From Chloroflexi bacterium HGW-Chloroflexi-10 (GTDB taxonomy: Bacteria; Chloroflexota; Anaerolineae; Anaerolineales; Anaerolineaceae): DNA of 64,000 nt. Location of the stretch: positions 62,001-126,000 of the forward strand of contig PHBZ01000014.1 in NCBI GenBank assembly GCA_002840755.1, read 5' to 3'. The position numbers and the translations under genes were made by a program. Of the stretch, positions 56,987-64,000 are shown piece by piece. The notes beneath the pieces are model-generated. The model did not search any database. It saw nothing but the letters and a program-made list of their open reading frames with translations, and had not been told where the DNA came from. Position 1 is the stretch's first letter, and each line of letters starts with the position of its first letter.

Positions 56987-58552
56987 ATGAAAAAATCCAG
57001 TTCATTTTTGGTTTTATTTGTTTTGTTAACTATATTATTATCCGCCTGCCAGAATAAAACGGTTAAGCTACCTGCGGATGTTCAGGCCGGCGATATTTTC
57101 TTGCAGGAATGCACTTATAAAATCGAAGGTAAAAAGCAACCCGCTCAATGCGGCACACTCCTGGTTCCGGAGAACCGCACCCTAAGCAATTCTCGACTGA
57201 TCCCGCTGCCCGTAATTGTTGTGCCGCCGACAAATGCGGATCTCAATAACATACCGATTTTCTGGTTAGAAGGCGGGCCTGGGCAATCCAACCTTAAATT
57301 CAACATTCCAGGTTGGATGCATGAAAACTTTCCTGTTGTTATGGTGGGTTATCGCGGCATGGATGGGGAAACACAAATGCAATGCCCGGAATTAAGCAAA
57401 GCGTTAGGCCAGGACCAATTACCGGCACATAGCAGTGAAGCCATTAACCTGAGCCGCAAAGCATTAACAGACTGTGCCACTCGCCTGACAAACGCCGGTT
57501 TTGATCTTTCTGCTTACAATATTGCTGAGACTATACAGGATATGGAAAATGCGCGTACCACCTTGGGTTATGATCAGATCAATTTATTCAGCATCAGTTA
57601 TGGTACCCGTCTGGCACAATTCTATTCACAAAACTTTCCCACAGTGATCGCTCATAATCTGATGGTCAGTGTTAATCCGCCCGGGCATTTTGTGTGGAAC
57701 CCGCAGCAAATCGATAATCAACTGGCCTATTACAACCAGCTGTGTCAGGCAGATCCCTATTGCGCTAATCAAACCAGCGATCTGACTCAATCCATACGCA
57801 GCGTTTTTGAAAATATGCCGCAGCGCTGGTTATTTTTCCACATTGACCCGGATAAGGTAAAAATGGGATTATTTGCCCTGCTCTTCCAACGCGATACAGC
57901 GGTCGTAGGATTTGACGCAATTCTGCGCGCTGAACAGGGCGACGAATCCGGACTGTTCTTATTAAGCATGGCTGCCGATCAAATGATTCCCAACCTGGGT
58001 ACCTGGGGCCATTTCTATGCAATGGGCAGCACGGATTACACCCCGAATTATGACTATTTTAACCAGCTCAACCCACCAGATTCGATCATAGGATCGCCGC
58101 TTTCCATACAAATTTGGGCGCCTAGCGATGGCTGGACTATTTTCCCTGTGGATAAAAAATATACCCAACTGCAACCCAGTGATGTTGAAACCCTGATGAT
58201 CAGCGGCAATGTAGATTTTTCCACCCCGGCTGAAAATGCCACCAATGAGTTATTACCCTTCCTCACCAATGGACACCAGGTGGTGCTGAAAGAATTAGGA
58301 CATGCCGGCGACGTCATCAATACCCAACCCGAAGCATTTAAACAATTAGCGTTTGGTTTTTACCAAAATGGCAGCATAGATGATTCTGCATTTCAATATG
58401 TACCCATGCAATTTAAGCCAAAATTCAGCCTGACATCTATTGCCAGAATTCTGATCGCCCTGCCATTTATCCTTATTTTGCTGGCTGGGCTGATTATCTG
58501 GCTGGTCATTCATAGAAAAGCAAACCAAAAAATGCTTAAAGCGGTACAATAA
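56987..58552 (+). CDS. Lipoprotein alpha/beta hydrolase with C-terminal membrane helix
   Basis: A 521-residue protein. Signal and lipobox LLSAC start it, and a C-terminal helix (ILIALPFILILLAGLIIWLVI) anchors the other end. The domain has GGPGQSN as oxyanion motif, nucleophile Ser in FSISYGTRLA (the usual first Gly replaced by Ser), acid in SGNVDFSTPAENA and base His in LGHAGDV, as in tripeptidyl-peptidase-like S33 enzymes. It likely acts at the cell surface on peptides or esters. Confidence 0.85.
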   Translation: MKKSSSFLVLFVLLTILLSACQNKTVKLPADVQAGDIFLQECTYKIEGKKQPAQCGTLLVPENRTLSNSRLIPLPVIVVPPTNADLNNIPIFWLEGGPGQSNLKFNIPGWMHENFPVVMVGYRGMDGETQMQCPELSKALGQDQLPAHSSEAINLSRKALTDCATRLTNAGFDLSAYNIAETIQDMENARTTLGYDQINLFSISYGTRLAQFYSQNFPTVIAHNLMVSVNPPGHFVWNPQQIDNQLAYYNQLCQADPYCANQTSDLTQSIRSVFENMPQRWLFFHIDPDKVKMGLFALLFQRDTAVVGFDAILRAEQGDESGLFLLSMAADQMIPNLGTWGHFYAMGSTDYTPNYDYFNQLNPPDSIIGSPLSIQIWAPSDGWTIFPVDKKYTQLQPSDVETLMISGNVDFSTPAENATNELLPFLTNGHQVVLKELGHAGDVINTQPEAFKQLAFGFYQNGSIDDSAFQYVPMQFKPKFSLTSIARILIALPFILILLAGLIIWLVIHRKANQKMLKAVQ

Positions 58553-58561
58553 AATCATCAA

Positions 58562-58709
58562 TCAGGTGACTAGGGTTCCGCTGCTGAGCAGGCCTGGACC
58601 GAGCGTCACACAAACACACCATTGGGGTGTAAAGTACCTGAGCGGATAAAAGCCTTGAGGGATTAGGTTGAGCGGTTTTTCAACGCGCATCAAATCTACG
58701 GAGGCTTTT
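58562..58709 (+). ncRNA. ykkC-class riboswitch
   Basis: The conserved core CTAGGGTTCCG is at 58570-58580 and the distal CTGGACCGAGCG at 58594-58605. GTGAC (58566-58570) pairs with GTCAC (58605-58609) as P1. CTGC-TGA-GCAG (58581-58591) forms the P2 hairpin, and ACACC/GGTGT a P3 hairpin (about 58616-58630). The conserved 3' segment TAAAAGCCT (58647-58655) is the exact complement of AGGCTTTTA (58702-58710), which overlaps the Shine-Dalgarno and start codon of the EamA gene. The layout is that of ykkC RNAs, which sense guanidine, ppGpp, PRPP or related nucleotides. The AGCG after GGACC leans to the non-guanidine subtypes, but this is uncertain. Confidence 0.75.
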
Positions 58710-59597
58710 ATGATTAAGAATTGGTCACCTTTAAAGAAAAACAGGCTGATTGCCCTATTTGTCACCTTTCTGTGGTCCACATCCTGGGTGTTGATTAAAT
58801 GGGGTTTGGCAGGTATACCACCACTGAAATTTGTGGCAATCCGCTACAGCATTGCCTGTGTGTGTTTATTACCGCTGATCCTGCCTGAAAACCAACGCAA
58901 AATCATCGCCAGTTTATCTAAAAAACAATGGCTGCTCTTATTTCTATACGGGATCGTGTTTTTTGGAATCACCCAAGGTGCTCAGTTTGTTGCGCTTAAG
59001 TATATTCCTGCCGTCAGCGCCAGCCTGATTCTCAGTTTTACAGTGATCACTGTTACACTGCTGGGTATTCCATTTTTAAAAGAAACTCCTTCCCGCTTGC
59101 AATGGCTGGGAATCAGTTTATTCGTTATAGCTATCCTGATGTACTTTTTTCCAATTACATTTTCCGGAGATCAATGGATCGGCATCGCTGTAATTGTTAT
59201 CGGCATGTTTGCCAATTCTGCCGGCACCTTGTTGGGACGACATATCAATCGCACTGGGAACATACCCGCTGTTACGGTCACCATTATAAGCATGGCTATT
59301 GGCGCTATTGTGTTGAATATCGCGGCAGCGTTGGAAGGACCTATTCCACACTTGAACTTTTCTCAGTGGGCTGTGATTGTGTGGTTGGCAGTTGTAAACA
59401 GCGCCCTGGCTTTTGTCTTATGGAATCACAGCCAACGGATTCTGCCAGCCAGCGAATCCAGCCTGATCAACAATACAATGCTTTTTCAGATTGCTATTCT
59501 GGCCTGGATCTTCCTCGGTGAAAGCCTTGGCCTTAAAGAATTAATATCACTTCTTATCGCCATTACAGCCATCTGGCTTGTGCAAAAACAAAAATAA
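58710..59597 (+). CDS. EamA/DMT-family exporter under riboswitch control
   Basis: A 295-residue protein with ten helices, two EamA units (about 10-140 and 155-290). ATG 58710 follows GGAGG at 58700-58704; an upstream in-frame start at 58668 would lie inside the riboswitch. FLWSTSWVLIKWGLAGIPPLKFVAIRY is the family opening. DMT exporters move amino acids, metabolites or cations. The ykkC leader points to a substrate linked to that ligand. Confidence 0.9.
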   Translation: MIKNWSPLKKNRLIALFVTFLWSTSWVLIKWGLAGIPPLKFVAIRYSIACVCLLPLILPENQRKIIASLSKKQWLLLFLYGIVFFGITQGAQFVALKYIPAVSASLILSFTVITVTLLGIPFLKETPSRLQWLGISLFVIAILMYFFPITFSGDQWIGIAVIVIGMFANSAGTLLGRHINRTGNIPAVTVTIISMAIGAIVLNIAAALEGPIPHLNFSQWAVIVWLAVVNSALAFVLWNHSQRILPASESSLINNTMLFQIAILAWIFLGESLGLKELISLLIAITAIWLVQKQK

Positions 59598-63219: not shown

Positions 63220-64000
63220 ATGCACGAACAAAAACCGATTGCCATTGTAGGTATGGGGGCCATCATGCCAGAAGCATCCGATGCTCATAGCTTCTGGAAA
63301 AATATTCTCGCAAAAACAAATACCATTGGTGAAGTTCCACCAGACCGTTGGCCTACAACATTGTATTACCATCCCGACCCGAAGATGCCGGATAAATCTT
63401 ACAGCAAAATTGGCGCCTGGGTAAAAGATTTCCACTTTGAACCCAGTAAAATGCGAATTCCTATTCCACCGACCGTAATAGCGCAGATGGACCAAACCCA
63501 ACAATGGGGTATTGTAGCCAGTTACCAGGCATTATCCGATTATGGTTATCCGCAAAAGGGTCTCGACCCTGAACGCGTTGCCGTGATTCTGGGCAACTCC
63601 AACGCTGGTGAACGCCATTATCGCTCGACCATGCGCATCCTGTTACCGGAATACCTGGTTGCATTAAGCGATTCGGATGCCTTTCGGGGACTGCCGGAAC
63701 AGGTACAGCAGCAAATCCTTGCTGGTTTCAGTAATAATATTCAATCACAAATACCAGAAATTACTGAAGACACCATGTCCGGAGAACTTTCCAATATTAT
63801 TGCCGGCCGTATTGCCAATGTATTTAACTTCAGTGGTCCCAATTTTGTAACAGATGCTGCCTGTGCCTCGTCTTTATCCGCTTTACAGGCTGCTGTACAA
63901 GGCTTAAACGCCTATCAGTTTGACGCTGTCCTCACTGGTGGGGTTGACCGAAATATGGGACCCGAATCTTATGTAAAATTCTGTAAAATCGGTGCGCTCA
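63220..64000 (+). CDS. Beta-ketoacyl synthase of a PUFA-synthase/PKS-type enzyme, 3' truncated by window
   Basis: ATG 63220 follows GGAGGAAA; the frame is open to the window end (260 codons). The chain starts KPIAIVGMGAIMPEASDAHSFWKNIL, the modular ketosynthase opening, then EVPPDRWPTTLYYHPDPKMPDKSYSKIGAW. The active-site Cys215 lies in DAACASSLSALQAAV, followed by GGVDRNMGPESYVKFCKIGAL. The style (YHPDPKMPDKSYSKIG) resembles PfaA-type omega-3 fatty acid synthases or HglE-type glycolipid synthases more than modular type I PKS. Acyl-chain product unknown. Confidence 0.92.
   Translation, partial: MHEQKPIAIVGMGAIMPEASDAHSFWKNILAKTNTIGEVPPDRWPTTLYYHPDPKMPDKSYSKIGAWVKDFHFEPSKMRIPIPPTVIAQMDQTQQWGIVASYQALSDYGYPQKGLDPERVAVILGNSNAGERHYRSTMRILLPEYLVALSDSDAFRGLPEQVQQQILAGFSNNIQSQIPEITEDTMSGELSNIIAGRIANVFNFSGPNFVTDAACASSLSALQAAVQGLNAYQFDAVLTGGVDRNMGPESYVKFCKIGAL

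What the first reader, a model, noticed from the sequence alone, without database searches (positions are those of the whole stretch)
58562..58710. ykkC-class riboswitch with start-site sequestration upstream of an EamA exporter
Seen: the conserved CTAGGGTTCCG and CTGGACCGAGCG elements, a P1 stem, two hairpins, and the conserved TAAAAGCCT segment being the exact 9-nt complement of AGGCTTTTA, which covers the Shine-Dalgarno and start codon of the exporter gene. Known: ykkC RNAs sense guanidine or, in the variant subtypes, ppGpp, PRPP or related nucleotides. The downstream ten-helix EamA exporter is not the usual SMR guanidine pump. Inference: ligand binding holds the conserved segment in the aptamer, freeing the start site, so export is switched on by the ligand.
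Basis: partly seen in the sequence, partly recalled or inferred. Interest (0 to 1): 0.78.

Follow-up and report, generated by a model that had tools for sequence, protein, structure and literature searches.

The report
Orphan ykkC riboswitch controlling exporter translation
A real RNA switch of the ykkC family, of the orphan sort whose trigger molecule is unknown, sits in front of an exporter gene; its relatives keep an extra helix which suggests that the trigger is a phosphate-bearing molecule rather than guanidine.

Summary
Window 58559-58662 matches the whole Rfam Guanidine-I model (39 bits, E 8.8e-6; gathering score 63). The start-site complement is exact (10 pairs plus one U-G). The guanidine-marking A is C, so this is a subtype-2 ykkC RNA. 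It heads an EamA exporter. All 27 pattern-found relatives precede exporters: EamA, phn_DUF6-type EamA, or MFS. phn_DUF6/EamA are the published partners of subtype 2d, an orphan in the 2020 review. So: a new member of a known orphan class.

Added here: (1) start-site pairing by an aptamer P3 strand is matched gene by gene (no permutation of 20000 as good), though 8 of 23 sequences show no advantage; the window uses another P3 strand than most. (2) A -10-like box lies just before the aptamer. (3) These RNAs have the add-on helix P0, absent from guanidine-I, replaced wholesale between lineages (UCAAC/GUUGA, UCGAC/GUCGA, CCCAU/AUGGG). This argues for an anionic, probably phosphorylated ligand, against the printed guess of a guanidine-like toxin. 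Supporting letter conservation is partly circular. Nothing was tested at the bench.

The parts
58545..58550 (+). -10-like box TACAAT, overlapping the end of the upstream hydrolase gene; predicted transcription start about 58557
   Evidence: a TATAAT-like box within 1 mismatch in the same zone in 17 of 27 sequences (4.9 expected by shuffling; 1 of 27 in each of two zones further upstream). The zone was widened after a narrower one (10 of 27) cut boxes at its edge. A general promoter scan found no sigma-70 site here
58558..58563 (+). P0 5' strand UCAAUC, pairs with 58666-58671
   Evidence: P0 in relatives with compensatory changes
58566..58570 (+). P1 5' strand GUGAC (with 58605-58609)
58570..58605 (+). 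conserved ykkC core CTAGGGTTCCG ... CTGGACCGAGCG with hairpin P1b; C58604 is the subtype-2 pyrimidine (A in guanidine-I)
58616..58630 (+). hairpin P2 ACACC-AUUGG-GGUGU
   Evidence: direct reading; present in the fold with the start site held open
58634..58657 (+). P3 domain GUACC ... GGAUAAAAGCC UU G; U58635 and G58657 are the long-range pair (C-G in 28 of 29)
58646..58656 (+). start-site-sequestering strand AUAAAAGCCUU
58657..58671 (+). conserved 3' tail GAGGGAUUAGGUUGA with the P0 3' strand GGUUGA 58666-58671
58700..58712 (+). Shine-Dalgarno and start codon GGAGGCUUUUAUG; 58701-58711 pairs with 58646-58656 in the OFF fold
58710..59597 (+). regulated gene: EamA (DMT superfamily) exporter, 295 aa
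   Evidence: Pfam PF00892 142.4 bits; NCBIfam best TIGR00950 90.6 bits, below its cut-off of 230.2

Best explanation
It is a translational ON riboswitch of the ykkC family, subtype 2d (orphan), at the very 5' end of the mRNA of an EamA exporter. Without ligand, AUAAAAGCCUU of the aptamer's P3 pairs with the Shine-Dalgarno and start codon and the exporter is not made. Ligand holds P3 (and P0) in the aptamer fold, frees the start site, and the exporter removes the ligand or a related compound. Shown by computation: family membership, subtype marker, P1/P1b/P3/P0 helices, exporter association, the start-site helix. Inferred: ligand-driven switching, ON direction, the ligand being exported, and that the ligand is anionic/phosphorylated.
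For: RF00442 full-length match, E 8.8e-6. Model R1, built from the window RNA and 28 relatives, scores the 36 exporter RNAs given at 71.8 bits or more and the other ykkC RNAs there at 67 or less. Covariation: 91.5% of cells paired, 82 double-change cells, 0 of 500 shuffles reach either. Exporter genes follow 27 of 27 pattern-found loci: 20 EamA of the window type, 5 phn_DUF6 type, 2 MFS (most window-type ones recognised by N-terminal sequence). R1 in 396 Anaerolineae genomes: 16 matches in 15 genomes, before EamA (13) or phn_DUF6-type (3) genes. In 349 Pseudomonadota genomes the 4 best of 26 matches (63 bits or more) precede phn_DUF6-type genes. Start-site pairing own-versus-swapped: mean -17.24 against -15.00 (sd 0.50), 0 of 20000 permutations as good, 23 non-redundant sequences. 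Holding the window start site open costs 11.1 kcal/mol. P0: own score 6.69 against 6.20 permuted, 17 of 20000, 34 sequences, tails placed by the model (10 of 20000 with tails placed by eye); guanidine-I RNAs in the same geometry score 4.28. Subtype-2d partners and unknown ligand: PMC7266159 and PMC5912903 (passages).
Against: RF00442 score is under the gathering cut-off. No ligand known or tested. R1 does not separate the classes cleanly: the Pseudomonadota exporter RNAs L149 and L150 score 64.1 and 63.1, under the HAD-NUDIX RNA L026 (67); a split copy (L007) and a degenerate one (L142) score 36.6 and 26.3. phn_DUF6 matches are 75-138 bits against a curated cut-off of 288, so these are relatives, not certified members. 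The 27 loci were chosen by a pattern that fixes the marker C and much of the 3' tail, so conservation there is partly circular. In one search, 8 of 23 sequences pair with their own start region no better than the mean of swapped ones (L028, L039, L041, L042, L044, L047, L055, L060). L136 carries A at the marker position; L141 has no recognisable P0 and L028 a weak one; in L139 the EamA reading frame is shifted part-way. In PMC5912903 the subtype-2d consensus is called most similar to guanidine-I, with extra tail conservation stated only for 2a-2c.
Confidence: 0.85

Rival explanations
1. Guanidine-I riboswitch: senses guanidine and switches on a guanidine exporter.
For: Best and only Rfam match is Guanidine-I; DMT exporters and guanidine exporters share a superfamily (argument in PMC5912903).
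Against: Marker position is C (A in 56, G in 7 of 63 RNAs parsed from 60 loci taken as guanidine-I, nearly all by their high RF00442 scores); CACC instead of CACG in P3; P0 helix; R1 scores guanidine-I RNAs 53 bits or less. PMC6031431 says that subtype 2 was defined as the variants that do not recognise guanidine and that 2a and 2b do not respond to it. One exporter RNA (L136) does carry A.
Confidence: 0.05
2. One of the solved subtype-2 classes (2a ppGpp, 2b PRPP or 2c nucleoside diphosphate) put in front of an exporter.
For: Shares the pyrimidine marker, CACC, a G96-equivalent and a P0 helix with 2b; P3 is nearest to that of the one 2c-type RNA found, before a HAD-NUDIX fusion gene (L026, 67 bits).
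Against: Gene partners met are exporters only; tail and P0 sequence differ from the purine-gene RNAs (GGUUG.. against GGUUUC), the A74-equivalent is G in 25 of 29; the published sorting puts phn_DUF6/EamA in its own class.
Confidence: 0.15
3. Decayed or non-functional ykkC relic.
For: Low RF00442 score; U58635 turns the otherwise C-G long-range pair into U-G; C58643-U58655 mismatch at the P3 base.
Against: R1 96.9 bits for the window, although the window was in the training set; core motifs intact; matched start-site helix; a genome of the same genus and one of the same family keep gene and RNA.
Confidence: 0.04

Closest known systems
ykkC subtype 2d RNAs (orphan; EamA/phn_DUF6 and TauE genes; PMC7266159, PMC5912903)
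   Same: ykkC core, non-guanidine marker, EamA and phn_DUF6-type exporter genes downstream
   Different: P0 add-on helix is shown here; the passages read mention extra conserved tails only for 2a-2c. MFS exporters in 2 Ktedonobacteria are a gene type not named in those passages; no TauE gene was met among the genes looked at. The published 2d alignment was not available to compare
PRPP riboswitch (ykkC subtype 2b; PMC6031431)
   Same: pyrimidine 49, C78, G96, a P0 helix and mostly GG at its base (numbering carried over by eye)
   Different: position 74 mostly G not A; P0 sequence GGUUG not GGUUUC; exporter not purine genes
NDP riboswitch (ykkC subtype 2c), taken here as the RNA before the HAD-NUDIX gene in Ktedonosporobacter (L026/L067)
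   Same: GCACCU and GCCCGAGGGG in P3
   Different: P0 strands GAGCU/AGCUC (by eye), terminator-like stem instead of start-site pairing; one example only, assigned by gene context
Guanidine-I riboswitch (RF00442)
   Same: P1, P1a/b, P2, P3 layout and most invariant letters
   Different: A at 49, CACG, no P0; in print its genes are guanidine carboxylases and SMR guanidine exporters

Membership tests
ykkC motif (RF00442 scaffold) | full-length covariance-model match with P1, P1a, P2, P3 | tested here: met
   39.0 bits, E 8.8e-6, 1-107/107; P1, P1a/b and P3 pairs by covariation on 29 sequences (P2 was not counted)
ykkC motif (RF00442 scaffold) | score over Rfam gathering threshold (63 bits) | tested here: not met
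   the exporter RNAs seen score about 24-45 bits with this model
Guanidine-I riboswitch (subtype 1) | A at the binding-pocket position (A46, PMC6031431) | tested here: not met
   C58604; guanidine-I-type RNAs A in 56, G in 7 of 63 parsed
ykkC subtype 2 | pyrimidine at that position | tested here: met
   C58604; of 14 exporter RNAs not chosen by the pattern, 13 C and 1 A (L136), read
ykkC subtype 2d | EamA/phn_DUF6 or TauE transporter downstream | tested here: met
   EamA; RNA relatives precede phn_DUF6-type genes
ykkC subtype 2d | fit to the published 2d consensus | not testable with these tools
   the three papers tried for it are not held
ykkC subtype 2d | no response to guanidine, ppGpp, PRPP, NDPs | not testable with these tools
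   needs in-line probing
Polyanion-sensing ykkC aptamers (2a-2c) | add-on helix P0 from the two tails | tested here: met
   weak by duplex energy alone (680 of 20000); L141 is an exception
PRPP riboswitch (2b) | purine genes downstream and G96 | tested here: not met
   G58657 is present but the gene is an exporter

The most novel reading that the evidence does not exclude
The orphan ykkC subtype 2d senses not a guanidine-like cation but a phosphorylated, perhaps nucleotide-like, anionic metabolite, held by the P0 helix and PRPP-type phosphate contacts, and three kinds of exporter (EamA, phn_DUF6, MFS) remove it or a product of it.
Probability: 0.5. Interest if true: 0.75.

Novelty: new member of a known kind. 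Interest (0 to 1): 0.5.

Why it matters
Subtype 2d was named in the 2020 review as a remaining orphan of the ykkC family. A covarying P0 helix changes which ligands should be tried first (nucleoside diphosphates, phosphorylated sugars or amino acids, pyrophosphate-like anions) and the alignment gives about 30 natural RNAs, some with strong start-site helices, to test. Solving it would also give a substrate class to two uncharacterised EamA exporter families.

Tried and rejected
Rejected: guanidine-I identity (marker position, P0, CACC). Gathering-threshold Rfam scan of the window: empty. Looking for co-regulated enzymes that would name the ligand: 42 of the 49 neighbouring ORFs listed were scanned (one long and six short ones left out; neighbours of the window, L028, L040, L042 and L058 were not in that list) and no Pfam family matched more than 3 of 42 (best 25 of 82 families shown). 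The threonine-synthase-like gene near L039/L060 was dropped as a clue: it has its own SAM riboswitch. No solved structure matches the exporter by sequence. Viral contigs: 0 matches to the pattern. Looking for more 2c-type RNAs in 47 genomes of the Ktedonosporobacter record's class gave no further match above 37 bits (the weak ones were not read). Cyanobacterial low scorers in 6 genomes gave no member of this class (L144 and L146 are guanidine-I-like, L145 lacks the core). In 229 genomes of the Betaproteobacteria record's class 18 had RF00442 matches, 17 over the cut-off; only the centre itself scored like this class. P0 by duplex energy alone was weak (680 of 20000); by pair score 254 of 20000 with 30 sequences, 10 of 20000 with 34 after adding the Pseudomonadota RNAs and L141 with tails placed by eye, 17 of 20000 with tails placed by R1. 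The guanidine-I control was itself slightly better than its own permutations (139 of 5000), at a near-chance level of 4.28 against 4.06. The permutation tests do not remove relatedness.

Rows dropped: L058 (5' part at a contig end) but not; L039 also from the -10 count; near-duplicates of 90% or more; L007 (RNA split by an insertion) from alignments; two of 37 exporter RNAs and the HAD RNA did not parse. L040/L042 are the same records as L006/L005 and stay in the 27 and 29.

Full report
1. What is there. Between an alpha/beta-hydrolase-like gene (56987-58552; weak Pfam match just under its cut-off) and an EamA exporter (58710-59597, PF00892, 142 bits) lies a leader of about 150 bases. Rfam finds only Guanidine-I there, full length, 39.0 bits, E 8.8e-6, under the 63-bit gathering score. 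It is the only credible such match in the genome (the next two have E above 3).

2. Start site. TAAAAGCCT/AGGCTTTTA is exact and extends to 11 bp (58646-58656 with 58701-58711). The fold leaves 58701-58711 at most 8% unpaired; holding 58700-58712 open costs 11.1 kcal/mol. Nine or more perfect pairs between aptamer and start region occurred in 57 of 20000 letter shuffles.

3. Relatives. RF00442 searches found the same RNA plus an EamA gene in one genome of the same genus, one of the same family and one of the same order, the last with its RNA split by an insertion: with the window's own, 4 of 101 genomes. In 400 Chloroflexota genomes 27 had RF00442 matches at E 0.1 or less; two of the weakest (L032, L033) look like chance, and the others read fell by gene into guanidine-I, purine-gene, NCS2-permease, histidine-phosphatase, MFS, HAD-NUDIX and exporter groups (genes of several groups were named by eye). 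A pattern from the exporter group found 27 loci in all genome contigs: 22 with Chloroflexota names by my reading of the titles, plus one Betaproteobacteria, one Syntrophaceae, two cyanobacterial and one unplaced record. All 27 precede an exporter: 20 window-type EamA, 5 phn_DUF6-type, 2 MFS (most window-type ones were recognised by their N-terminal sequence, not scanned; several genes run off the locus). In L039 and L060 the RNA heads two DMT genes, window type then phn_DUF6 type, overlapping by 4 bases (the second gene was scanned with NCBIfam in L039 only). One Anaerolineae genome (G1183) has two such RNAs, one before each type.

4. Model test. R1, built on 29 sequences with P0 left unpaired, gives 71.8 bits or more to the 36 exporter RNAs among the 83 loci, 67 to the HAD-NUDIX RNA and at most 58 to the rest. 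In 396 Anaerolineae genomes R1 finds 16 matches in 15 genomes, before EamA (13) or phn_DUF6-type (3) genes; the weakest (L142, 26 bits) has a degenerate core and in L139 the EamA frame is shifted (most genes by N-terminal sequence). In 349 Pseudomonadota genomes, 24 have matches (26 in all); the four of 63 bits or more (104.3, 71.3, 64.1, 63.1) precede phn_DUF6-type genes, and the 13 that I read of the 22 weaker ones have the guanidine-I marker A. Two of these four score under the HAD-NUDIX RNA, so score alone does not draw the line.

5. Structure by comparison. On A1, 91.5% of 577 cells pair, 82 cells have changes on both sides, and no shuffle of 500 reaches these; slid controls pair 21-40%. 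P0, not part of the model's pairs, is seen in nearly all: GUCAACU/GGUUGGC, UCAACC/GGUUGA, UGCC.ACC/GGU.GGCA, UACC.ACC/GGU.GGUA, UCGAC/GUCGA (L149, L150), CCCAU/AUGGG (L148), AUCAACUC/GGGUUGGU (L143). With tails placed by R1, own partners beat permuted ones (6.69 against 6.20; 17 of 20000 as good; 34 sequences). L141 lacks it and L028 is weak.

6. Expression platform. For 23 non-redundant sequences the aptamer's 3' domain pairs with its own start region better than with those of others on average (0 of 20000 permutations), though relatedness is not removed by this test and 8 of the 23 show no advantage. In most of the rest the strand is GCACC(U) or a close form with AGGUGC; the window uses the other side of P3, AUAAAAGCCU. 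In both cases P3 must open, so ligand binding to P3 should expose the start site. L046 and L062 have A-rich strands that could pair with a downstream U-run as a terminator (reading). A TATAAT-like box sits immediately upstream of P0 in 17 of 27 (4.9 expected; 1 of 27 in each of two zones further up; a narrower zone first gave 10 of 27), so the transcript should begin with or close to the P0 strand; in the window the box overlaps the hydrolase stop codon.

7. Which subtype. The subtype marker (A in guanidine-I, pyrimidine in 2a and 2b; PMC6031431, passages) is C58604. phn_DUF6/EamA and TauE genes mark published subtype 2d, whose ligand was unknown in 2020 (PMC7266159, passages). The listings of library searches (some cut short of all papers found) show no later ligand report; the library lacks most subscription journals. 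A 2025 guanidine review (PMC12186494, passages) does not use the word subtype; two 2022 reviews (PMC10043782, PMC9971707; passages) gave nothing on 2d.

8. Ligand reasoning (inference). PMC5912903 (passages) reports tail conservation for 2a-2c, calls 2d most similar to guanidine-I and guesses a guanidine-like toxic compound. The RNAs here have P0, which in the PRPP aptamer holds the pyrophosphate and is absent from guanidine-I (PMC6031431). Letters equivalent to G48, C49, C78, G96, A103 are invariant in A1, C77 is C in 25 and U in 4, and 104 and 105 are each G in 28 of 29; this is largely circular, because the search pattern fixed 48, 49, 96-98 and 103 and asked for purines at 104-105; 77 and 78 were free. 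In the 14 exporter RNAs not chosen by the pattern, read by eye, 49 is C in 13, 78 is C in 13 of 13 readable ones, the G96-equivalent is G in 14, but GG at 104-105 is not kept in 7 (L028, L136, L140, L141, L148-L150). The P3 strands are close to those of the one 2c-type RNA (HAD-NUDIX gene). Hence my reading: an anionic, probably phosphorylated ligand. The exporters themselves give no substrate.

9. Verdict. A real, ordinary-looking member of an orphan riboswitch class with a clean expression platform. The window itself adds an unusual start-site strand; the comparison adds P0 and an MFS partner for the class. Whether P0 in 2d is already printed in papers that I could not read is not known.

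Noticed in passing
L007, - strand, about 1198-1445: An exporter-class ykkC RNA in a genome of the same order is split by a near-perfect inverted repeat of about 54 bases (MITE-like, by eye) in the P2 region; R1 matches the two halves separately (36.6 and 32.2 bits).
   Followed up: no
L012, L014, L015 (1492-1609 in L015): Subtype-2 ykkC RNAs upstream of histidine-phosphatase genes (L015 scanned: PspA/CobC-like; the other two by eye) in Chloroflexota, a gene partner not named in the PMC7266159 passages read; PRPP-like P0 GAAA/UUUC by eye.
   Followed up: partly
L016, L018-L023, L029-L031: Subtype-2 RNAs, several with long insertions, most before NCS2-type purine permease genes (recognised by eye in most, not scanned), with the tail GGUAGGUUCACUC or similar.
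   Followed up: no
L024, L025: Subtype-2 RNAs with a tail unlike the other groups; L024 precedes an MFS transporter, the L025 gene was not identified.
   Followed up: no
L026/L067, 1492-1624: Probable NDP (2c) riboswitch before a HAD-NUDIX fusion, with an AAAAAGCC/GGCUUUUUU terminator-like stem that resembles the window's start-site helix.
   Followed up: partly
L136, 1501-1629: Exporter RNA with A at the subtype marker and UCACCGGC in P3: looks intermediate between guanidine-I and this class.
   Followed up: no
L039 1-2157 and L060 1908-3937: EamA and phn_DUF6-type exporters in one overlapping pair under one RNA, possibly a heteromeric transporter; followed by a SAM riboswitch and a threonine-synthase-like gene.
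   Followed up: partly
window 63220-63999: Start of a beta-ketoacyl-synthase-like gene (polyketide/PUFA type by its N-terminus, by eye) running off the window.
   Followed up: no
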